DNA of 64,000 bases from Gloeophyllum trabeum ATCC 11539 (Eukaryota > Basidiomycota > Agaricomycetes > Gloeophyllales > Gloeophyllaceae). Location of the stretch: positions 1,070,647 to 1,134,646 of the forward strand of contig NW_006920412.1 of the NCBI RefSeq assembly GCF_000344685.1. Direction: 5' to 3'. The number at the start of each line of letters is the position of its first letter. Positions within the stretch are counted from its first letter, which is position 1. The notes under the pieces were generated by a model. The model did not search any database. It had not been told where the DNA came from and worked only from the letters and a program-made list of their open reading frames with translations. A program made the translations under genes and the position numbers. Shown one piece after another: positions 1 through 54,666 of the stretch.

Positions 1-1546
1 AAAGTTTACGTCGGCCATCACATTTCCAAGAAGGTGCGTAACACAACGCTAGATAAGATGAAAATACGCTAACAGTGACAGTTACTTTAGGAACGTCAAG
101 CCAAGATTGACGAACAAAAGAAACAATTCACTAACATCTACGTGAAGAACATCGATCTCGAAGTCACGGACGAGGAGTTCAGGGAGCTTTTCACTAAGTT
201 TGGCCCTGTTACCTCTGCAGTTCTTCAGAAGGACGAGGAGGGCAGGAGCAGGGGCTTCGGTTTCGTCAACTACGAGAATCATGACGACGCTCAGAAGGCT
301 GTGGAGGCACTGCACGATTCCGAGCTCAAGGGCAAGAAGCTCTACGTGTCTCGCGCGCAGAAGAAGGCCGAGCGTGAAGAGGAGCTACGTAGGTCGTACG
401 AGCAGGCGAAGATGGAGAAGTTGAGCAAGTACCAGGGAGTCAACCTCTACATCAAGAACTTGGAAGACGACATTGACGACGAGCGTCTCCGCTCTGAGTT
501 TGAGCCTTTCGGCACTATCACTAGTGCCAAGGTCATGCGGGACGAGAAGGGACAGTCCAAGGGCTTTGGTTTCGTCTGCTTCTCTTCTCCGGACGAGGCC
601 ACGAAGGCCGTTGCGGAGATGAACAATAAGATCATTGGTTCCAAGCCCCTGTACGTCTCCCTCGCCCAGCGTCGCGAGATCCGCAGGCAGCAACTGGAGA
701 GCCAGATTGCTCAGCGCAACCAGATTAGGATGCAGCAGTTGGCTGCTGCTGGCCTTCCTGGTGGTTACCCCAACGGACCCATGTACTACCCTCCTGGCCC
801 TGGTTACCCTCCTCAGGGCGGTCGTGGTATGATGGGCTATGGCCAGCCGGGTATGATGCCTCCTCGTCCCCGCTACCCCAACGGCGGGCAGCCGGGTATG
901 CCTATGCCTGGACCTTACGGGCAAGTCCCTCAGGGTTACGGTATGCCCGGATACCCTCGCGCGCCTCCTCGTGGTCCTCCTGCTCCTCGTGGTCCCGGAG
1001 AGGCCGGTGCTCCCCCTGCTGGCCGCGGCGCCAACGGTGTTCCTCCTCCAGTCAACGGTGCTCCTAGGCCAGCCGGCGCTGCAGGCGCCCCTGCCGGACG
1101 GCCTGCTGCGGTCCCGGCTGGTGCACCTGCTGGCGCTGCCCGTCCCCAGGGATACAAGGGCAATGCGCAGGGCCGACCTGCTCCTGCTGGTCAACCTGCT
1201 CCAGCTGGTGCACCGCAACTTGATGGCCTGCCGACGATCTCGCCCGCTACACTGGCGAACGCACCTCCGATGGAGCAGAAGCAGATGCTCGGCGAGGTGT
1301 TGTACATGAGGATTGCTCCGTAAGTCGATTCCCGCTGTGCGTAGTCTGGACTTCATCTGATGCCTATGTTTCTATAGTGCTGCTGGGGAGCTTGCTGGCA
1401 AGATTACTGGTATGCTTCTCGAGATGGACAACAGCGAGCTTCTGCACCTCTTGGACGCCCCGGACGCGTTGAACGCCAAGGTGGCCGAGGCTATGATCGT
1501 CTTGCAGGAATACCAGTCGAAGGAGGATGAGCAGAAGGCTCAGTAA
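1..1546 (+). CDS. PAB1: Polyadenylate-binding protein (5' truncated by window)
   Basis: This is the C-terminal part of the cytoplasmic poly(A)-binding protein, which coats mRNA tails and links them to translation and deadenylation factors. The first 33 bases code for the end of RRM2 ([11 protein letters not shown]). An intron then runs to about base 90. RRM3 follows from about base 130 (RNP1 [11 protein letters not shown]) and RRM4 from about base 445 (RNP1 [11 protein letters not shown]). A Pro/Gly/Ala-rich linker spans about 740-1220. The MLLE (PABC) peptide-binding domain begins near 1225 ([26 protein letters not shown]) and is split by an intron at 1320-1377. It ends at [16 protein letters not shown] and a short tail before TAA at 1544-1546. 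RRM1 and the start codon lie upstream of the window. Identity is very secure from domain order and motifs. Confidence 0.96.
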
Positions 1547-14785: not shown

Positions 14786-17700
14786 ATGGCCTCGCCAGTA
14801 CAAGATCCAGTCCCGACGACTGCCCCCGATGACGGGGATGACCCGATGCAAGGTTCCGGACAGGAAGAAGAAGGCGAAGGCGACGACATTCGCCCTGCAG
14901 GTGGATCGGAAGACGATAGTTCCGAGGAGGAGGAGGAAGATGAGGAGGAGGCCAGACGTATACGCGAGGGCTTCATAGTGGATGAGGACGAAGATGAAGG
15001 GGAAGAGGAAGAAGAAGAACGGCGGCGGAGGAGGAAGCGGCGAAAGCGGCGCCATCGCAGAGGTACCGTGCTTTGCCTCGAGGACGTTCGCATCTAATAT
15101 TCCGTTATACGGCTAGAACGTGAAGAAGAGGAGGCTCTGGAGGATGAGGACCTCGAACTGCTAGAAGAAAATACGGGTGCTTCATTCAAGAACCGTCTGA
15201 CGCGCTTGCGACGCGGTCGGGACGACGAGTCTCCGCCCACTGCTTCGTCCTCGAAACGAAGAGTAGTCGAGGAATCTTCGGAAGATGACATCGAGAATGA
15301 CGACCTTGAACTTCCTGCAATTCAAGACATTCATCGCATCTGGGATGAAGGAGCTAGAGAGGATGAAGACGAGGATATGGACGACATGGACAACTTCATC
15401 GAGTATGAGGATGATGAAGAGGGTGTGGAAATGATGGACGAGCGTGAAAGAGAAGAGAAGAGACGAGAGAGGAGGCGACTGGAGAAGCAACGACGAAAAG
15501 CTCTCGGCCGGCCTGAGCTCGCTGGGATTGATGCGAAGTGAGTTTTCATATCCATAGTACGCGTCTCAAATGCCACCCGAGACTGATAATGGTTCCAGCG
15601 CGTGGGACGAGATCCACGAGGTATTCGGGGATGGTCATGACTATGACTGGGCTCTGGTTGATGAGGATGACGCTGAATACGATGAGGAGAAACTAAAACC
15701 TGAGATGAAGTACCAGGATGTGAGTCAACTGAAGACATTGCGCTTATTTGTCCTGACAATACCAGGTCTTTGAACCGTCCGAAATACGTGCTCGTATGTT
15801 AACCGAGGACGACGACTTGATTCGGGCGCAAGATGTCCCGGAAAGAATGCAGCTGGCCACATCGTCTCTTTCGCCGTCTTCCACTCTTTCATTACACAAG
15901 CCGTTGACTGATAATGATATCGACGACGCAGCTCAGTGGGTCTTGACTCGGCTGTCAACTCGCAAAGAGCGGGACTTCTTCCGCCGAGACGGCCAATACA
16001 ACCACTTGCTCGCGGATTTGGTTCAAGCGGCTTCATACGCCTTGCGATATCTGTTTGTCCATGAATTCGAGGTCCCTTACATCTGGACGCACAAGCGAGA
16101 CTATATCTCATATTTCAATCCCGCCGACATGCGGACAAGGGTGGAGCTGCTCAGTCTGGATGAGCTTTGGCGGTTGTACAGTCTTGGTCAGAAATATCGA
16201 TCGCTCATGGAGCGCCGGCATCATCTCGATGCTTTGTATGCCCGACTGGGTGTCTCGGACGAGTATTTCGAAAATGAAATCCGACGGAGGCTGGAGAGTG
16301 TCGAAGTTGTCGCGGACGCCACCGAGTGGTTGGGAATGAAGTACAAGGACAAGAAAAAGGACCAGTTCGAGCTCCATTTCCATGATGATGAGGAACCGGA
16401 GGCCCCTAAGCGGAAGAATCCTAGTCGGACGTCCGCGTACCAAGTCGCGAAGAACAGTGTCGTTGCCCGACTAGCGCAGGTATGTGTCAGGCTTCGATCC
16501 CATGTACACGTGTATACTGGACTGACATGGCCGCTCGTTCAGGGCTTTGGTATCACGCCCCACGAAATAGTTCTGAATTTCCTTGCTTCGAACAATTCAC
16601 ATTTCGTGGAAGACCAAGAGGTTAATCCCACTGCATATGCCGAGCAGTTTGCAGACCCGAATTCTTCGAAAATCGAGTCTCCTGAGGAGCTCCTCCGTCG
16701 TGCTCGACTCATTATCTCGACTGAGCTAGGGAAAGATCCTCTGCTCCGGCAGGAGATTCGGAATGTTTTCAAAAGCGAAGCTCGTATCTCGGTATCGCCC
16801 ACGGAACGCGGGATCACGAAGATTGATGAGCACCACCCGTATTATGTGAGTCTAATGTCCGCTTCGCACATGGTCCCATATTGATATTCCATACTCGTGC
16901 AGAACTTCAAATACCTGCATTGGAAGAGAGTCACTGACATGCTCCAGACACCTCAGTTCCTTCATATCCTCGCTGCTGAGTCAGAGCATCTCGTGACTGT
17001 TTCGATTTTCCTACCACCTGAGGCGAAGTCATCATTTGAACGCCGATTGAATGAAGCGTTCGCGTCAGACAGCTTCAGCGATACTGCAAAGGCGTGGAAC
17101 GAGGAACGATCGAAGGTAGTTCAGGAAACAATTGAGCAACACTTACTTCCCCTGGGTATGAAGTGGACACGCGAATGGGTGAGGGAGGAAGTGGAGGATT
17201 TCCTCGCGAACCGTTGCGGAGATGTTCTGCGTGAGGTGAGTGCACCAAGGTCTGGAAGCTTGCCTTCTAGTGCTTACCAGATGCCAGCGGATCGACGTGG
17301 CGCCCTTCAACACGGCCGACATGCAGCTCGGCGACACACCCTCGGTCCTTGCGATGTCTTGGGGCAAAGGTGACCCGCAGAAGGACGACATCGCCCTGGT
17401 CTTCTTGGATGAGGCTGGCAGACTACGCGAGCATACAAGGCTGGATAACCTCGTTGATGCAGATAACCGTCACGACTTCCGCGACTTGTTGAAGCGTCGC
17501 AAACCAGACGTCATTGCCATTGGTGGTTTCAGTATAACTACCACCAAACTGGCACACACCGTCAAAGATTTGCTTAAGGGAGGTCCAATGGATGCATACG
17601 GCAATTGGCCCGAGGAAAAGTTCGATATTCCCGTCATTTATATGTTCGATGAAGTTGCTCGCCTCTATCAGCACAGCAACAGGGCTTCTGAAGAATTCGG

Positions 17701-20070
17701 ATCATTGTCTGAAATCGCCAAGTACTGTGTGGGGTTAGCACGTTACGCGCAAAACCCTCTAAATGAATATGCTGCGCTGGGTGGCGACGTGACCGCCATA
17801 ACATTCGAAGAAGACTTCCAGCAATTAGTGGGTTGTTACTTATGTATGCGCTCGGTTGACCCTGACTTTGCATTCCCAGATCCCCAGAGAGAAGCTTCTG
17901 ACTGCCCTCGAACGTGTCCTTGTAGACATAGTCAACAAAGTCGGCGTGGACATCAACAGAGCTGTTACGGACTCGTATTACCAGCATCTCCTGCCATACA
18001 TCTGCGGTCTGGGACCACGGAAGGCACAGCTTGTTGTTAAGAAGATTGCAAGTATGGTGAGCACCGCGTTACATCTCGTGGATCATGATAAGAATCTGAT
18101 CCTGTTTGGTAGGGTGGCAATCTTGTGAACCGTGAACAATTTGTCAAGAATGGACTGCTCACTACCAAGATCTTCCTCAACGCTGCTGGATTTCTGCGTA
18201 TCACACATGACATCGAAACAACTAAGTCGTCTAAGAATCGTCATAACGACGACGTTGACACGCCGGACCCTCTGGATAACACTCGAATCCATCCCGAGGA
18301 TTATGAGTTGGCCAGGAAGATGGCCACGGACGCTCTCGAGCTGGACGAGGAGGACATCCAGGAAGAGTCGCCATCGCATGTAGTGTCTCTGATCATGCAG
18401 GACGACGACAGCGAACGAAAGCTGGACGAACTCAACCTCGACGATTTCGCTGTTAATATGTACGAAAACAGCAAGGACCGCAAGCGACATACCCTGAACG
18501 TCATACGACGGGAACTTATACACCCATTCGCGGAACAGAGGTCTAAATTCCCCTTACCGAGCGCTTGGGAGGTTCTGACAATGCTCACGGGCGAAACACC
18601 GAGGACCTTACGCATCGGGTTGATCGTCTCCGTACTCGTGGTTAGACCTAAGAAACACTTCGTTGCTGTTCGTCTCGATTCCGGCATTGAAGGCATGATC
18701 AATGCACAGTATCTCGCTGATCAATCCGTCGACTCGGAGACCTACGTGAAGAAGGGGCAAACCATCCCCGGGGTCATCATCGACGTCAAGCTGAACCTCC
18801 AGGAAGATCAATTCTCGGTCGAATTATCTTCGCGTCCTGCTGATGTCCAGGCGGGAGACAGCCAATTCCGTAGGGTCAAGCATGACGAAGATTGGAACCT
18901 GCATCAAGAGGAACGGGATAAAGAGATGCAGGCTCGGAAGAAGAGGGCAGAAGTCGACCGGACAAGACGCGTCATCAAGCACCCAAACTTCCACAACTTC
19001 AATGCTAGTCAAGCTGAAGCCTATCTGGACAAGCAGCAGCGAGGCGATGTGGTGATCAGACCATCATCCAAAGGTTTTAATCATCTGGCTGTGACTTGGA
19101 AAGTCGACGATAAGCTTTTTCAGCATTTAGGTGAAGCACACATATTTTAGTCCTCAGTCTGTTTGCCTTACTGTATTACTTGTAGATGTTGTGGAGCCAA
19201 ATGCCGATCCCACCGGGCAGGCAGTCGGCACTCGTTTCATTGTGGACGGCAAATACGAGTTCGCCGATTTGGATGAGCTGATCGTGAACCATGTTCAGGC
19301 CATGGCTCGGAGGGTCGAAGAGTTAATGGCCCACGAAAAATTCAAGCACGGGTCTGAGGAAGAGTTGCGTAAGTATCAGTTTCTCTGACCATCAGTCCAT
19401 GTGTGACCAACATCTCCGTAGACTTGTTCCTCAAGAATTTCGTGGCTGCCAACCCGTCGAAGAGTGCATATGGCTTCACTCTGAATCGGAAACGACCTGG
19501 CCACTTCAACCTATGCTTCCTTGCGAATAAGAATTCAACTGTTCAGAGCTGGCCAGTCCGGGTTGCCCCCGAAGCCTACTATCTCTTCGATACTGCCGCT
19601 CCCGGTGTTCAAGAATTGTGTGATGCTTTTAAAATTCGGCATGTCTTTCTCCTTGTCATTAAGAGGTTACGACTTACCCGTCTTGTAGACATTTGCATGA
19701 GTCCCAGAATCTGGCTGCCGGCGGCGCTGGCGGAAAAACACCATACGGCGCTGGGCGGACGCCTGCCCGGACGCCAGGACACATGACACCTGGGCATATG
19801 TCTGTCAGGCAATCGGCTCGGACGCCCAATCCTTACGGTGGTACGCCATCTCAGCCCGGACCTCCAGCAGGGTTTGGCTCCACTACCCCCTCTACTTACG
19901 GAATGCCACCCCCACAAACAACCTACGGGTATCAAACCCCGTCTTCCTATCCACCTCGCACGCCCGCGTTTCCTCAGCAGCCTGCGCCGCCCTCTGGAAT
20001 GAATCCTGCTCGCGCAGCTATGATTCAGCAGTCAGGTGGATGGGGAACCGGGTCGGGTGGTACCTGGTGA
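14786..20070 (+). CDS. SPT6: Transcription elongation factor / histone chaperone Spt6
   Basis: Spt6 travels with RNA polymerase II, binds histones and keeps chromatin ordered behind the polymerase. The N-terminus is strongly acidic (about 14790-15470) and ends in a basic helical stretch ([16 protein letters not shown]). The core follows: a helical part ([21 protein letters not shown] motif near 16040-16100), the inactive YqgF-like nuclease fold ([21 protein letters not shown] near 17340), the helix-hairpin-helix part ([17 protein letters not shown] near 18000), an S1 domain ([20 protein letters not shown] near 18620) and tandem SH2 domains ([20 protein letters not shown] near 19045, then [19 protein letters not shown]). 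The C-terminal tail is Thr/Pro-rich ([16 protein letters not shown]). About a dozen introns are present. Identity is very secure. Confidence 0.95.
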
Positions 20071-20349: not shown

Positions 20350-21800
20350 TCAGTCCTCCGGGGGCGTGAAGGGCAATGTGTCGCCGTTTACGTCGTTCCA
20401 CATCCTGACAAATTTCGCCAGTCTCTCTGGATCGGGTTTCTTGTTGGATGGCGGTGGCCGTCGGGAGGAAGCGTCGTCTAGCAGAAGTCAGCTGGGTCAG
20501 TAACGCCTTCGCTTCGATTGCAGGCAAGCAAACATACCCCAAATGACCTTCGTCTCCTTCGCTAGCTCTGATAGCCGTGACTTAAACGAGTCTTCGTACC
20601 GCTCGCGATCCTCCGGGTCCCCGAGGTCCATCTCAATGGTGACAAGGAAGGATACCTCTCGCAAAGCCGGGAACGCCCTATTTATATGTCCCTTCACAAG
20701 CTCCTCCCAATCGACGTCCTCGAAAAGAGCATCGACCGAGTAACCGTTGCCCCCCATGTAGAAACCGACTTTGAAAGCCCCAACGGTAGGGGTTACTGGC
20801 ATGTGAGCAACGAACTTGCGCACGAATTCGAGCGATGGCCAAGTCCCATCTCCATCAAGTGTCTCGCTGATCGTTACGAAGCCAATGTGCCGGAGATGCG
20901 GTAAGGGTTTCGCAACGAATGGCTGGTCCAGTTCGACTATTTTCAAGCGTATACTGTGTTATGAATGTAAATATGAATAAACAGATAACTCACCCTCGTC
21001 CCAAGCGGGGTCAATTGTCAGAGATTAAAGAGTGGGCAGATGACTCTATGAGCCATGCGGTCCACTCGGTCGAGAGAGCTTCCGTGCGAACAGAGAGCGT
21101 ACGTAAATTGCGGGACAGAGGTCGCGGGAATAGCCATTCGATGAGGTCGTCGTAGTCGTGAAACCTCGACCATCCGATATGCAGTGTCTCCAGTCCCGAG
21201 GCATCGTAGGTAAGGTCATCAGGGATGGCCCAGTCCCTATACTGGCACTCCTCGATACGCAGACTCTTTAATCCCTTGAAGAACGAGATGAATTTGGTGA
21301 GTTCCCTCCGTGAAGCAACGCACGCCGTGAGCGTCAAGTCCTTTACCTCCAATATCGAAGTTAAGAATGAAGATCGTGCGAGTTGCTGATTGACGCGTAT
21401 CCGGTGACCTAGATTGCCCATCCATTTCAGAACCTCCACCTTGGGCAGTGGCCCGAGACCGGGAAAAGAGAGGGTAATCTCCGGGCATCCAAGGGTAAAA
21501 ATCTATTACCCGAAGGTATTCGGTGCCGATCGCTGGACAAGACTTTATGAGCTTTTGCCAGCGCAATGGATGCTTTTCCGTTGACACATCCGCGGAATGG
21601 TGCAGCTTAGGTTGGGCGCATTCCCGCCACTTGTGCGACAGTAAGCAGCAGCTTTTGAGGTCATCTGAATCTTTCGGGTTCTCTACTATCTTGTGAATCA
21701 GCTCCAGAGGTAGGCAGTCAACACCTAATCGATGGAAATGTGTCAGTCAGTCTCCTCACTTTAAAATATGGTTATACGTACTTGCGGTCGAAATGTACAT
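20350..21800 (-). CDS. F-box-like / leucine-rich protein
   Basis: The first exon is short (MYISTA, start at 21800) and joins an F-box-like segment (DCLPLELIHKIVENPKDSDDL, LKSCCLLSHKWRECAQPKL) read near 21620-21720. The body contains degenerate leucine-rich stretches (EVKDLTLTACV, KGLKSLRIEECQYRDW, SGLETLHIGWSRFHDYDDL) and a region ending SRLSELAKETKVIWG. The last exon gives KPDPERLAKFVRMWNDVNGD and TLPFTPPED before TGA at 20350-20352. Such proteins form large, fast-changing families in Agaricomycetes and are thought to recruit substrates to SCF ubiquitin ligases. No target can be predicted. The start is chosen because the first exon splices in frame to the F-box. Length is about 430 residues. 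Confidence 0.72.
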
Positions 21801-22055: not shown

Positions 22056-23201
22056 ATGAGTCAACCTTGTGAGTCGTCGAAGTGCTCTGCATGGCCGAGC
22101 GGGTATAGATGAGACTTCAGTCGGCAGCAACCCGTACTATCAGAACAACACTGGGGGTGGATATCTAGCTGGAGGTTCACCATTCGGAGGCAGCCCCAAC
22201 AGCCCTGGTCAAAGAACGGTCCGTACCACACTTACTGTAAGATGATTCTCTATCTGATTCCCGTCCATCAGCGAAGCGCCGCAGCGCAGTCGTTGCGGCC
22301 TGTTAAAGTAAAACAACTATACTCAGCGACACAGGCTCATACAGATGCAGAGTGGAAGATCGAAGACATAGAAGTTGGGCAGGTGAACCCGCCCGGCCCT
22401 CGAGGTTTGGAATGTCTGCTCACACCTGTTTCTAGGTTTCTGTTGTCGGCACCGTAGTCTCGATACAACCCGGCACCACGAACAGCGTGTATTGGATCGA
22501 CGATGGAACTGGCCGTATCGAGGCGCGCCATTGGAATGGTACTGAGGAGGATAATGCGAAATGGGCAGATGTTGTGTACGTTGGCTGGTTAGTCCTGTTC
22601 TGGCATGTTGTTCAACGCTTCGTGGCATTCAGAGAAAATATCTACGTGCGGGTGACAGGCACGCCGAAGATGTTTGGCAACAAGCGATACATTAATGCGA
22701 CAAATATCCGGCCGACAAAAGATCTCTATGAACCATTTTTCCATGAGCTGGAATCCATTTACGTTACCCGCTTCTACAGAGAAGGCCCTGTAAGCCTCGC
22801 TCTTCACCTCACTTCCTAGTTGCTGACATGCGCGTCAAAAGCCGGGCGGGAGTGGAAACGCAGATCATAATATGTCACCGAACGGTCAAGGCAGTCATGC
22901 GTCGAACTACACCGCCCAAGCATCTGCAGGGCAGAGCGACCAATGGGCATCGCTTCCTCCCATGCAGCGTGCGATCATGAACTTTATGGCGAGCCAGCCG
23001 GATGACAGTGACGAAGGCATCCACGTTGGTGCTATCGCACGAGCTGTCCGAGGGGAACCAGATGCTATCAGGTACGTGCAGCGTCTAAGATCCTTCCGTT
23101 ATTTACTAACGTTGACCCAACGTAGTGCCGCACTTGACGCGCTCATGGACGACGGTCGAATCTACAGTACCTCGGATGAGTCGCACTTCAAAATGTCATG
23201 A
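22056..23201 (+). CDS. RPA2: Replication protein A 32-kDa subunit
   Basis: RPA32 is the middle subunit of the single-stranded-DNA-binding heterotrimer used in replication, repair and recombination. Seven exons (22056-22068, 22121-22218, 22272-22382, 22436-22575, 22633-22789, 22842-23071, 23126-23201) join in frame to 274 residues, the usual family length. The Gly/Ser-rich N-terminus (YYQNNTGGGYLAGGSPF) is the phosphorylated tail in other species. The OB fold follows (LRPVKVKQLYSATQAH, VSVVGTVVSIQPG, VYWIDDGTGRIEARHW, VRVTGTPKMFGNKRYI). After a short Gly/Ser/Gln linker comes the C-terminal winged helix (MQRAIMNFMAS, ALDALMDDGRIYSTSDESHF). Two ACGCGT boxes lie upstream. A related gene follows directly downstream on the same strand. 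Confidence 0.95.
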
Positions 23202-23438: not shown

Positions 23439-23587
23439 CCTTCGCCTTAGCCGTCGACCAGGGCATCTACCGGACTATACTCGAGCTCGCTCTACAAACT
23501 ACCACCGCTAGATGCAGTTTGTTTCTATGTCAGCGGAGCACACCTTTATTGAGGAAGGCATCAGTGCCTTCAGTGTATCAGTGAGCA

Positions 23588-25100
23588 ATGACACATGCCA
23601 CAGAAGGCTCCTCACTTCACTCGGCTCGTACCACACAGAACGAAGAAGCAATCCAAGGCAGGCTGCGCCCAGTAACTGTGCGCCAGATATTATCCGCGAT
23701 GCAAGCACATTCGAGGGCCAAATTCAGGATCGATAATTCCGAAGTAGTGAACGTAAGCGTCATGCCCACGGATCGCAACATCTCCAACTTCGATACGAAG
23801 TTCCTACCCAGGTATCACTTGTGGCTCATGTCGTCTTCATCGATACGAGTCAGGACAAGTGGAATGTGTTTCACTTGGAGGACTCAGGTCCGGGTCGGCT
23901 CGTTGCGCAACAGTGGGATGCCGATATTCCAGGGACCGAAGAGGACGAGTCTGGCGTGAGTGATATCAAGTAGGTATCCTGGCCACCTCTTGTCAAGAGA
24001 GGCATTCAGGTGTCATGAGTAGACCCGGTTCATACGCAAGAATTATTGGCCTTATCACACAATATGGGGGCAAGAACAGGCTCAGAGTGAGGTTCATCCG
24101 ACCAGTCGCGGATCCTCATGAAGTCTGGTGCCACATCCTGGACTCGATGCTCGTCACTCTGCAAGTTCGGCAGGCTTCTTCGGTAAGCAGGCGCTTCTCG
24201 CATCCTGTGATTGACAGGTCCGGTGAGGGACGTCCCATAGCAGGGCAATTTCGGTCGCTTTTACACTTCTCAGAGTTCTGAGCAGAGTGGCCGCTCGGAG
24301 GAGTTAGAGCAAACCGCAGAAGAGACGGGAAGCGTCGGGACTCCATGTCCCTCCACTGCTGAAGTCCACCTTTCACCTTTCGATGGCCAGAGAACACCGA
24401 CCTCTCCCAGACCGTCAAGCCCTCGGGCTGAAGCCCCCCTTCCCGAGGAACCACCTTCTCACTCGCACGGCGACGTAAGTGACAGCATTGACATGGCCGA
24501 CGACCCCGACACGTCCGCGCCCCCGATGGACGACAGCGTGCCTGTGAGTGATTGGGATCCTACTGTGTCCACCGGCTCGACGTCTACCATGGTGTCTCGC
24601 GACGGAGGCGGAGAAATGATCTCTTCGGATGCTCGTGTCGATGAGACAATTTCTCGAGTGGAGAGTCTCTCCCTTTGGGATGATGCTGAGCCCTTTACTT
24701 CCACTCCCGCGCCACACCAGGCGGGGGCCCCTAGTCATGGCCAAGCGAATGTTTTAAAAGAGGAATCGTCTAGGACCGCACTTGCTCGAAGAGCTCCAGC
24801 ATTAACGCCGGACCCGTACCAGCACCTGCCAAATTTACATAGGGCTATCATGGTACTGATGCACGAAGCCGAGAGCCAGACGCACCAGGGCACTGATGGA
24901 GTGAAGCGCGAGAGGATAATTCGGGGCATGAAGTTCAAGGACCCGAGCGTAACTACTGAGCAAGTAGAGTGCGTAATCCCGTCTCTTTATTTAGTGTGCG
25001 GTGCTGATGTGAATGGTCTAGGGACGCTTTGGAACTCTTGCTTGACGACGCCCGCCTTTATACCACGATCAACGATCGTCATTACAAGGTGGCGTACTAA
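23588..25100 (+). CDS. RPA2-like paralogue with extended linker
   Basis: Five exons (23588-23752, 23812-23969, 24020-24182, 24241-24968, 25022-25100) join in frame to about 430 residues. The OB-fold half matches RPA2: LRPVTVRQILSAMQAH for LRPVKVKQLYSATQAH, VSLVAHVVFID for VSVVGTVVSIQ, then VFHLEDSGPGRLVAQQWD. The last two exons give a winged helix (LHRAIMVLMHEAES, then ALELLLDDARLYTTINDRHY). All four introns shared with RPA2 sit at the same place and phase (0, 2, 0, 2). Between the domains the RPA2 linker is replaced by a much longer Ser/Thr/Pro/acidic stretch. Two junctions are less usual: a GTAGGT donor with a TGAG acceptor, and a CATAG acceptor at 24240. The N-terminus is uncertain; an upstream first exon is possible. 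Whether it joins an RPA trimer is unknown. Confidence 0.8.
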
Positions 25101-25376: not shown

Positions 25377-27143
25377 TCACTCCCGAGGCGCCTTCTCCCG
25401 GATTGCACTCGCATCCGCAGAGGCATCCACGGTTGTATCCGCTGTCGTGTCCGCCGCTGTGTCCGCCGCTGTGTCCACTGAGGTATCAGCCGCCGTGGTC
25501 GCAGCTAATCTCCTCTTCTCTGGGACCTTCTTCATATCACTACCAGGGGTACCGGTATTCGTAGACGTACTGGGCGACGGCGAATGACTCCCACCTGCCC
25601 CCTGCCGCGGCGGAGTGGCCGCAATCACATCGGCATACGAGGGAGGGTTGAAGCGCTGTCTTGACCTAGGCGGCGTCGTGATATAATCGCCTTGATCATC
25701 GTCGTCCAGAAGAGACGGAGAGGTCACGTCTCGGCGAGGCGAAGAGAGAATGACGTCGATGGACTGGGATTGGTGGTGCAGCGAGGTGGTGCTCTCAGAC
25801 CCGGCGCTCGTCGTCCGGCTGTGCCAGCCTGCCCGCGAGGGGGAGAGGCCGCCTTCGACGTCCGTGGATGCGATCGTGAATTCTGTGCTCGGCATCCGGC
25901 GGGAAACGTAGGTATTGCGGTGTGCCACAGCGGCCGTGGTCGTGTTCGTGTTCGCCATACCGCTCAGGTTGAGGGGAGTGGTGGTGCCCATCTCGGTCAT
26001 GTCGCCTGAGAAGGCCGTCGTGCCGGAAAGTGAATGCTTGTGAAGCGTCCCGTTGTTCCCGTTGACTCCTGGCTGCTCCCAGTTCTCTTTGGCCTGTCGA
26101 CGCTTGCGGATAATTCTCCAGGCTACAATACCAAGGATAGCAGACAGCAGCGCGATAGCGCCGACTACACCACCCGCAATTGCGCCGACAGGGGTCTTCT
26201 TCGACGAAGTGTCATCAGGGAGGTCGGAATGGCCTGACCAGACTAGTCAGCATCTGAAGGTCATGGAGGAGTTGTGAACACGCTCACCCTGCCCAGCCAG
26301 ATTCTGAGCTGAAGTCAGATCGAATATCCCGTTCGACCATGTCGTAGCTAGGTTGACGCCCTAAGCTTATCTCCTACTTTTGCATAATTCATGAAGACTC
26401 ACGATCGGTACCCGCCCAGTACGGTATGGCAGTGGTGTCTGGCACGGTGAAGTTACTTGTGGGCCAATATCTAGAGTCACCTCAGAGCAAGCACAGTCGG
26501 ATATACCAACCTAACTCACGTGCTTGTAGAGTAGTAGCCGGTGCAGTTAGTCTTGTATGCATCCCAGCTAGACCCGGGGACCACTCTTCAGTATGCAACA
26601 AGGCAAGGCATGTATTTACGGAGACGTACGTATGGACCGACTCTGCAAATGCTGAGCCTTGGCACAAGGTGCAAGCGCTGATCAGATTGTATGCAGACCA
26701 GGAACTATAAATGTACGTCAAGAAAGCTCGGGATTGCTTAATGCAACGAACGCTCACCATTCACAGACGTCTACAGGCGTGCACGTCTGCCCGGGTGTAT
26801 TGTACGAGGTGATGGGATTGTTCTGCAGAGGCTGGATAGTCCAGCCTACGCATTGAGTCGATATCGTCAGCCATAGGACGCATCGAAAAGCAAGTCACTA
26901 CTTACTTCCTTCGTTGCATCTCGCCAACAAGTACGCCAGGACAAGGCACGGCGACTGTTGCAGGTGATTGTCCATCCAGCTATATTGGGACTGGCACACG
27001 ACATTGGAGTTGACGGACAGGACTTTGGCTTTGGCGTCGTTGAGCGTGCAGCCGTTAGCTTGGGCCAGTACCGAAGGCAGAAAAATCATGATGGAGAGTA
27101 AAATAAGGATACATATCATTGTTGATGTCCGCAGCTCGTACAA
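25377..27143 (-). CDS. Signal-peptide, Cys-rich, single-pass membrane protein (copy A)
   Basis: The N-terminus is a signal peptide (MICILILLSIMIFLPSVLA, with a second possible start 24 bases upstream). A Cys-containing ectodomain follows, with CQSQYSWMDNHLQQSPCLV, LAYLLARCNEGS, CECSWSAYNLISACTLCQG and WDAYKTNCTGYY. A juxtamembrane Ser/Asp stretch leads to one membrane helix (VGAIAGGVVGAIALLSAIL) with a basic stop (WRIIRKRRQ). The cytoplasmic tail of about 240 residues is rich in Ser, Thr and Pro and ends in degenerate Ala-Asp-Thr repeats. At least six introns interrupt the ectodomain. Architecture is that of the single-pass wall-sensor or receptor-like proteins common in basidiomycetes, but no ligand or partner can be named. 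A clear relative lies at 44225-45538 on the same strand. Confidence 0.75.
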
Positions 27144-53140: not shown

Positions 53141-54312
53141 CTAAACATCGAAGGCAGCTGTGACTGCCCCATACACGGCCGAAAGCACCTTCACCCTTCC
53201 CTCCATGGGCTTGTCCTTGTCGCCGAGCCCCGCGCCGGCGGCAACGTAGATCGGGACGAAGTGCTCTGCGCGCGGGTGGGCGAGGCGGAAGGAGGGATGA
53301 CGGGGGAGTGAGAGTAGGGCGTCGGTCTGAACGACGGGTTAGTTAGATTACCAGAGACGAGAGGGGATTACATACGGAGGGTGAGGTGAGGGCGTCAAGG
53401 ACGGCTTGGTGGAAGTCTTTGTAGGGCTTTGTGGCGTTTGCGGGGGAGAAGGAGGAGAAGTCGCGGAGGTTGTGGATGGTGAGGCCGCCGGACAGGACCA
53501 GGATCCCCTCCTCTCTGCAGAGTATTCGTTATACAGACTGTGCAGAATGAGACGGTTGCGTACCTGAGCTTGCTGACAGCAGCCCCGACCGCCCAGTTCT
53601 TCTCCGGGCTCAGGCTGGCGTCAATCGACACCTGGACGATTGGCACGTCCATAAACACCTCGCCAAACATGATCCTGAATGGGACGAACACGCCGTGGTC
53701 GAGCCCTGGTCCCTGGAAGCCCCGCCCATCCTCCCCGCGCGGCTCGAGCTTGCCGGTAGTGCGCGCGAGCTGCCCCACGTCCTTGAAGCACTGCACAATG
53801 CGCTGGGCGAGCACTTTGTCGCCGCGCGAGCGGAACTGCAGCTCGTAGAGCTCGCGGTCGAAGCCGTAGTAGTCCATAAGGAGCGGGTTGCTGTCGCCGT
53901 AGTCGGTGACGAGGCGCTCACCGGCGGTCTCCCAGTGCGCGGAGAAGACGAGGATTCCGCGCGGGCGGTACTTGTCGAGCAGAGTAGGCCCGAAGTCAGA
54001 GAGAAACTGGGCGAGGGGGCCGCTGGGCCCCATGTGGGCCATGATGGAGTCCGTGCCGAAGCGCGAGCGGGTGGAGGACGTGGCGAGCATGGGGGAGCCG
54101 TGGGCGAAGAAAAAGGCGGGAATGCGGGCAGGCGAGGAGGGCAGCGAGGCGAGCGCTGCTTGCCATTCGGCGCGCGTCTGCGGGAGGGCGGTCGTTGACA
54201 TCGTGCGCAGGCTTGACGGGGGCAGTCTACGGAAGAGAATGGCGAACGATAGAGCGACAAGGATGGGCACTAGCGTGCGTGCGGTAAACCAAGTTGAAGC
54301 CACGCTGGGCAA
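53141..54312 (-). CDS. DODA-like extradiol ring-cleavage dioxygenase
   Basis: The protein belongs to the LigB class III extradiol dioxygenases, close in pattern to plant and bacterial 4,5-DOPA dioxygenase-like enzymes. The iron and active-site motifs are present: IPAFFFAHGSPML, GILVFSAHWET, GPGLDHGVFVPFRIMFGE, VPIVQVSIDASL and, after introns, ILVLSGGLTIHNLRDF and HPRAEHFVPIYVAAGAG. It ends AVYGAVTAAFDV with TAG at 53141-53143. The first Met (54312) adds a hydrophobic stretch (TLVPILVALSFAILF) that could anchor the enzyme in a membrane; a second Met (MSTTALPQ, 54201) would give the usual soluble form. The reaction is opening of a catechol ring; the natural substrate is not known. Confidence 0.87.
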
Positions 54313-54666
54313 GGGATGTTGTACAAAATGATGTCGAATTGGGCCATTTATGCAGAGCTGGTTGAGTGATCCAGTAAGCTGTTATAAAGGGGAATAAGCA
54401 GCTCGGCGTAAGCAATTACGATGCATTACCCGGTATGGCAGCCCTAACCTTAGCATCGTCGATCGCGTTGTAGCGTCTCACTTGAATCATCTCTCGGGAA
54501 GACTTTCTCGCATTTTGCTTACACCTCGTTGTATGCGTACGCTGAGATTATCGTCCAGGCCTTACAATAGAGACGGAGAGCGTGTTCTGAATCTAGGCGC
54601 GGAGAACCTGTTCAATTGCGACGGCTGTCGAGGTGTTCGTTGCGCGTTTTTGTTGCGAATTCCAAG
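54313..54666. promoter_or_regulatory. Divergent promoter region DODA-like/HRQ1
   Basis: The 354-bp gap between divergent starts contains a single TCGCGT at 54463-54468. No TATA box is obvious. Confidence 0.3.

What the first reader, a model, noticed from the sequence alone, without database searches (positions are those of the whole stretch)
23588..25100. Intact tandem paralogue of RPA2 with an expanded linker
Directly after RPA2, on the same strand, lies a second gene with both an RPA32 OB fold and an RPA32 C-terminal winged helix. All five exons join in frame, and the four introns that can be compared sit at the same positions and phases as in RPA2, so it arose by gene duplication, not by retroposition. 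The OB fold is diverged, and the linker has grown to well over 150 residues rich in Ser, Thr, Pro and acid. RPA2 is single copy in the fungi I know. An alternative RPA32 is known in primates (RPA4) and several in plants; a tandem, long-linker version in a mushroom-type fungus may form an alternative RPA for repair, meiosis or dikaryon growth.
Basis: partly seen in the sequence, partly recalled or inferred. Interest (0 to 1): 0.78.

Follow-up and report, generated by a model that had tools for sequence, protein, structure and literature searches.

The report
Second, long-linker RPA32 gene in mushroom
A wood-rotting fungus carries, right next to the gene for one subunit of its main single-stranded-DNA-binding complex (RPA), a second, much altered but intact and apparently expressed copy with a very long flexible linker, which may build an alternative form of that complex.

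Summary
The window is Gloeophyllum trabeum, a brown-rot Agaricomycete (its RPA2 record P0003 reads 265/265 from the window). Directly 3' of RPA2 lies an intact RPA32 paralogue. Five introns match RPA2 introns 2-6 in phase, three exactly and two within one residue. AlphaFold gives a confident RPA32-type OB fold, C-terminal helix and winged helix, joined by a disordered linker of about 190 residues. The most conserved RPA2 positions are preferentially kept, and a neutral frame would not have stayed open. It is a diverged duplicate; no other copy or orthologue was found at limited sensitivity. Best reading: an alternative RPA32 subunit on the one detected RPA1, with altered DNA- and partner-binding surfaces; this function is inferred. 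Later RPA2 duplicates are known in primates, plants and nematodes, and STN1 is an ancient one; my paper searches listed no fungal RPA2 duplicate besides STN1.

The parts
22056..23201 (+). RPA2 (RPA32), 7 exons: 22056-22068, 22109-22218, 22272-22382, 22436-22575, 22633-22789, 22842-23071, 23126-23201; 278 aa. The 13-base first exon and the donor of intron 2 are inferred from homologues
   Evidence: P0003 (G. trabeum ATCC 11539) reads 265/265 from the window
23527..25100 (+). RPA2 paralogue, 6 exons, 430 aa, stop codon at 25098-25100
   Evidence: P0001 identical at 429/430 residues across all five splice junctions; PDB RPA32 match; AlphaFold
23527..23580 (+).
   Evidence: P0001 N-terminus; intron 23581-23638, GTGAGC..ACACAG, phase 0
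23639..24182 (+). Paralogue exons 2-4 (23639-23752, 23812-23969, 24023-24182): OB fold, residues about 20-162, with the C-terminal trimerisation-type helix (residues 141-162)
24241..24816 (+). First part of paralogue exon 5: disordered linker, residues 163-354 (192 residues), Ser/Thr/Pro/acid rich, seven S/T-P sites
   Evidence: one short 7-base repeat of 2.1 copies only, no second copy found in the genome
24817..25097 (+). Winged-helix domain, residues 355-430 (rest of exon 5 to 24968, and exon 6 25022-25097), split by a phase-2 intron at the same place as in RPA2

Best explanation
It is a tandem duplicate of RPA2, not recent by its divergence, that has been kept as a second RPA32-type subunit. 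Shown by sequence: an intact six-exon gene, a matching intron-free product in a public collection, constraint on RPA2's most conserved positions. Predicted: the OB fold and its C-terminal helix, so it should be able to sit in RPA32's place on the one detected RPA1 (and on RPA3, whose gene I could not detect). Inferred: the resulting 'alternative RPA' still binds single-stranded DNA through RPA1, while the paralogue changes the regulatory part. It has lost RPA2's Gly/Ser-rich N-terminal tail; several near-invariant residues on or near its OB DNA face are changed while the two stacking aromatics are kept (Trp, and Phe to Tyr); its winged helix has lost part of RPA2's acidic partner patch and hangs on a long tether with S/T-P sites. 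It would thus coat ssDNA but recruit a different or smaller set of repair factors than RPA2-RPA does, as a specialised or competing form of RPA.
Confidence: 0.6

Rival explanations
1. It is mainly an antagonist: it competes with RPA2 for RPA1 and so lowers canonical RPA function at some breaks, as reported for C. elegans RPA-4, instead of supporting repair.
For: Changed residues on or near the DNA face with a predicted intact fold and helix; precedent: C. elegans RPA-4, an RPA-2 paralogue; [quoted passage not shown]
Against: Nothing here measures competition; both stacking aromatics are kept.
Confidence: 0.22
2. It has left the RPA complex and works with other partners, for example as an STN1-like telomere protein or with a MEIOB-like RPA1 relative in meiosis.
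Against: By sequence the single protein matches RPA32 chains and no STN1 chain at E up to 1; a profile of 78 sequences, mostly RPA2, reaches STN1 only at 5e-6 against 1.2e-50 for RPA32; introns and place are those of RPA2; no MEIOB N-terminal domain hit. The STN1 and MEIOB searches rang in no control genome, so they show no absence.
Confidence: 0.12
3. It is a decaying duplicate or an assembly artefact without function.
For: Fast divergence; known from one species only.
Against: Intact frame and splice sites over six exons, matched by P0001 at 429/430 residues; selective retention of conserved sites; no second copy found.
Confidence: 0.04

Closest known systems
Primate RPA4 (alternative RPA)
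   Same: RPA32 paralogue; human RPA4 replaces RPA32 in a complex with RPA70 and RPA14 (PMC10779431, passages)
   Different: RPA4 is 47% identical to RPA32 (same passages) against 34% here over the OB region; RPA4 is not a tandem neighbour of RPA2 and has no 190-residue linker (both recalled); independent duplication (inference)
C. elegans RPA-4
   Same: RPA-2 paralogue that forms a dimer with RPA-1, whose formation RPA-2 inhibits (PMC7913698, abstract)
   Different: Independent duplication in nematodes (inference); its sequence was not compared here
Plant RPA2 paralogues (Arabidopsis two, rice three)
   Same: Several RPA32 genes, with a limited set of distinct complexes (PMC4830875, passages)
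   Different: Plants also have several RPA1 genes (same passages); here the RPA1 domain searches point to one locus
STN1 of the CST complex
   Different: No match of the single protein to STN1 chains; RPA2-type introns; one winged helix here, two in STN1 (recalled)

Membership tests
RPA32 (RPA2) family | OB fold of the DBD-D type | tested here: met
RPA32 (RPA2) family | C-terminal helix of the trimerisation core | tested here: met
   Helix 141-162 predicted with high confidence; 11 of 23 columns equal to the consensus of 103 relatives, RPA2 10 of 23. Assembly itself not tested
RPA32 (RPA2) family | C-terminal winged helix (RPA_C) | tested here: met
RPA32 (RPA2) family | RPA2 gene structure (introns) and place | tested here: met
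   Five introns with phases 0,0,2,0,2 match RPA2 introns 2-6, three exactly and two within one residue; tandem to RPA2. RPA2 intron 1 has no counterpart
RPA32 (RPA2) family | N-terminal Gly/Ser-rich phosphorylated tail | tested here: not met
   26 residues before LRPV, five of them acidic; five N-terminal columns conserved at 95% or more in the 101 relatives (RPA2 Y15, G21, G22, P29, P37) are missing or changed. I take this as an accessory feature, not needed for the fold
RPA32 (RPA2) family | ssDNA stacking aromatics (human W107, F135) | tested here: met
   W91 and Y123; other near-invariant residues nearby are changed (R105 to Q, T88 to D, K to T at 133)
Alternative RPA (functional class: RPA4-like) | Stable complex with RPA1 and RPA3 in place of RPA2 | not testable with these tools
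   Only single-chain prediction was available
STN1 | OB fold of the STN1 type | tested here: inconclusive
STN1 | Sequence similarity to STN1 rather than RPA32 | tested here: not met
   No STN1 chain at E up to 1 with the single protein, eight RPA32 sequences at 4.3e-5 or better; with the 78-row profile STN1 5e-6, RPA32 1.2e-50

The most novel reading that the evidence does not exclude
Gloeophyllum trabeum makes two RPA heterotrimers from one RPA1. The second one uses a subunit in which RPA2's phosphorylated N-terminal tail has been given up and a phosphorylatable stretch of about 190 residues now sits between OB fold and winged helix, turning RPA's partner-docking domain into a long-reach, separately regulated arm. 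This would be the first alternative RPA in a fungus that I know of (CST aside), evolved by tandem duplication independently of primates, worms and plants.
Probability: 0.35. Interest if true: 0.65.

Novelty: new variant of a known kind. Interest (0 to 1): 0.46.

Why it matters
RPA has long been considered a well-conserved, unalterable complex (PMC4830875, passages). A tandem, fast-evolving but constrained RPA2 copy in a fungus that can be cultured would allow a test of how a cell divides labour between two RPA complexes, and of whether RPA2 duplication repeatedly leads to repair-biased or antagonistic RPA (primate RPA4, worm RPA-4, plants). It also shows that such a copy can fall under the Pfam cut-off and escape simple copy-number counts.

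Tried and rejected
Retroposition: rejected by five shared introns and by genome searches that find only this locus, broken at its introns (one search scores only the best candidates). Recent Gloeophyllum-only duplication: not supported but not rejected. Where G. trabeum RPA2 carries a residue seen in under 5% of the other 103 sequences (32 columns), the paralogue has the common residue 8 times, the derived one 4 times, another 20 times; at 13 Gloeophyllales-derived columns it has consensus 3, derived 2, other 8. The tree has 42 rows: the paralogue, G. trabeum RPA2, RPA32 stretches of Ustilago, human and yeast, and 37 that I chose of the 107 other database proteins. The paralogue lies within the Agaricomycete RPA2s (100/100 against Ustilago, Saitoella, yeast, human and P0108) and nearest the three Gloeophyllales (76/32, weak). 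Holding it with G. trabeum RPA2 alone gives p-AU 0.265, holding it outside all Agaricomycete RPA2s 0.156; neither is rejected. The program warns that its long branch makes its place unsure.

Rows dropped: the conservation and residue counts use 103 of the 108 database proteins; P0001 (entered as the paralogue), P0002, P0003, P0107 and P0108 were left out. Unnamed sequences among the 103 are taken as Agaricomycete-like, not shown to be. The AlphaFold alignment has 78 of the 108.

Orthologues: the whole-protein search found P0001 and a Saitoella RPA2 only (only the 7992 candidates sharing most words were scored); the OB-region search found P0001 only, among 154 candidates. These searches missed almost all RPA2s that one search shows to be in the database (33-42% identical to the paralogue among the best 40), so absence in Neolentinus and Heliocybe is not shown. 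No annotated paralogue of G. trabeum ATCC 11539 came up either; the search allows lengths of about 236-752 aa only. RPA3, STN1 and MEIOB N-terminal searches gave nothing, but rang in no control genome. RAD52, an RPA32 client in animals, has one locus, not pursued. Linker origin: one 7-base repeat of 2.1 copies does not explain its growth; no other genomic copy was found. dN/dS between the copies is not interpretable because dS is saturated (the YN00 estimate failed). An Rfam scan and a tRNA scan of the window gave nothing, NCBIfam nothing relevant. Net charge of the winged helix was looked at: -2 against -6 in RPA2, within the relatives' range of -9 to 3 (100 sequences), so it is no argument. 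My first gene models had splice-boundary slips (both genes; last RPA2 exon), corrected. One table failed through a script error and was redone.

Full report
What is there. The window lies in contig C3 of a 35.5-Mb genome in 34 contigs. Its RPA2 is that of Gloeophyllum trabeum: the public RPA32 record of strain ATCC 11539 (P0003) can be read from the window over all of its 265 residues, including the stretches where that record reads through introns. G. trabeum belongs to Gloeophyllales, Agaricomycetes. RPA2 has seven exons between 22056 and 23201; the 13-base first exon and the donor of intron 2 are inferred from Neolentinus and Heliocybe.

The paralogue. 325 bases downstream, on the same strand, is a six-exon gene (23527-23580, 23639-23752, 23812-23969, 24023-24182, 24241-24968, 25022-25100) of 430 codons plus stop. 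The correction comes from P0001, a database protein of 430 residues on a 3337-base contig (source code 'lgn'), which equals the spliced window sequence at 429 of 430 residues (residue 298, Arg in P0001, Thr in the window, in the linker). As it runs without break across five introns, the contig most likely derives from RNA; I cannot exclude a splice-aware gene caller on genomic DNA. That 'lgn' stands for the Logan assemblies is my recollection. The contig is about 2 kb longer than the coding sequence, which I could not explain.

Origin. The five introns have phases 0,0,2,0,2 and lie where RPA2 introns 2-6 lie: three at the same aligned place, two shifted by one residue. No other copy was found in the genome. 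So it is a DNA-level duplication. In a 42-row mixture-model tree it falls among the Agaricomycete RPA2s (100/100) and weakly nearest Gloeophyllales, on a branch of 3.22 against 0.26 for G. trabeum RPA2. Topology tests leave the date open. At 32 sites where G. trabeum RPA2 carries a residue rare elsewhere, the paralogue shows the common residue twice as often as the derived one (8 against 4, other 20), which suggests that the duplication is older than many of those changes; at 13 Gloeophyllales-derived sites the count is 3 against 2 and says nothing.

Constraint. Among 137 columns on which the three Gloeophyllales RPA2s agree, the paralogue keeps 22 of 31 where the other 101 RPA2s are at least 97% conserved, 10 of 18 at 90-97%, 5 of 28 at 80-90%, 6 of 21 at 60-80% and 9 of 39 below (2 of 10,000 permutations as strong). 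dN to RPA2 is 0.79 over 222 codons, with dS saturated. A neutral simulation with substitutions only left the frame open in 48, 4, 0 and 0 of 3000 runs at 0.1, 0.2, 0.4 and 0.8 substitutions per site. So for much of its history it was very probably under selection as a protein.

What changed. The linker grew from 44 to 203 residues (alignment measure; 104 RPA2 sequences: 8-58, median 43), inside one exon and without repeats that would explain it. It has seven S/T-P sites, none of the form S/T-P-x-K/R. The Gly/Ser-rich N-terminal tail of RPA2 is gone. The aromatics of human W107 and F135 remain (W91, Y123), but residues near-invariant in the 103 relatives are changed: R105 (103 of 103) to Q, T88 (102) to D, the basic residue at 133 (K in 101) to T; at the V142 site (N in 99) it has R. 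These positions were chosen from a docking study of human RPA32 (PMC12115182, passages), not from measured contacts. The double W107A/F135A mutant of human RPA32 is reported to bind ssDNA weakly and to suppress the 30-nt mode (PMC10450186, passages). In the winged helix the acidic patch described for human RPA2 (E223, D260, D261, D262; PMC8053108, passages) reads D, N, D, R in the paralogue and E, D, E, S in G. trabeum RPA2. Net charge stays within the relatives' range.

How it probably works. The conserved fold and helix suggest that it can occupy RPA32's place on RPA1, for which the genome search shows a single locus by two domain models. Changed DNA-face and partner-patch residues and the long tether suggest a complex with other client proteins or other regulation. 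Whether it helps genome maintenance, as proposed for primate RPA4 (PMC4830875, passages), or antagonises canonical RPA, as reported for C. elegans RPA-4 (PMC7913698, abstract), cannot be told from sequence.

What is known. RPA4 replaces RPA32 in human alternative RPA (PMC10779431, passages). Plants have two or three RPA2 genes, and MEIOB, an RPA1 paralogue, has relatives in some fungi (PMC4830875, passages). STN1 is listed as an old RPA2 paralogue in yeast and man (PMC4748036, passages). My paper searches on RPA32, RPA2 or RFA2 with fungal, basidiomycete or Gloeophyllum terms and duplication or paralogue terms listed, by title and abstract start, no report of another RPA2 paralogue in a fungus; two searches showed only 10 of 22 and 12 of 21 papers. 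Passages of PMC10122647 and PMC10901339 held none either. The library holds open-licence papers only, so this is weak evidence of novelty.

Verdict. A real, intact, constrained and probably expressed long-linker RPA2 paralogue; a new variant of a known kind. The alternative-RPA role is the best inference, not a result.

Noticed in passing
22219-22271 and 23072-23125: The public G. trabeum ATCC 11539 RPA32 protein (P0003) starts inside RPA2 intron 2 and retains intron 6 as an 18-residue insert; it is probably a mis-annotation.
   Followed up: yes
P0001 (contig of 3337 bases): The contig carrying the spliced paralogue is about 2 kb longer than its coding sequence; it could include long UTRs, read-through or overlap with the convergent gene. 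I did not see a tool here that fetches that contig.
   Followed up: no
15757-19147 (+): Upstream gene is SPT6 (HTH_44, YqgF, HHH, S1/OB and SH2 domains).
   Followed up: partly
21240-21746 (-): F-box-like protein, weak Pfam hit (20.5 bits, under the 24.3 cut-off), divergent to RPA2.
   Followed up: no
25380-26246 (-): Convergent open frame of 289 residues directly downstream, without a Pfam hit, with a hydrophobic stretch that looks like one transmembrane segment (seen by eye).
   Followed up: no
91-1320 (+): RRM repeats plus the start of an MLLE domain (22.2 bits, under the 27 cut-off): poly(A)-binding protein-like gene.
   Followed up: no
53398-54381 (-): LigB-type aromatic ring-opening dioxygenase domain (66 bits).
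   Followed up: no
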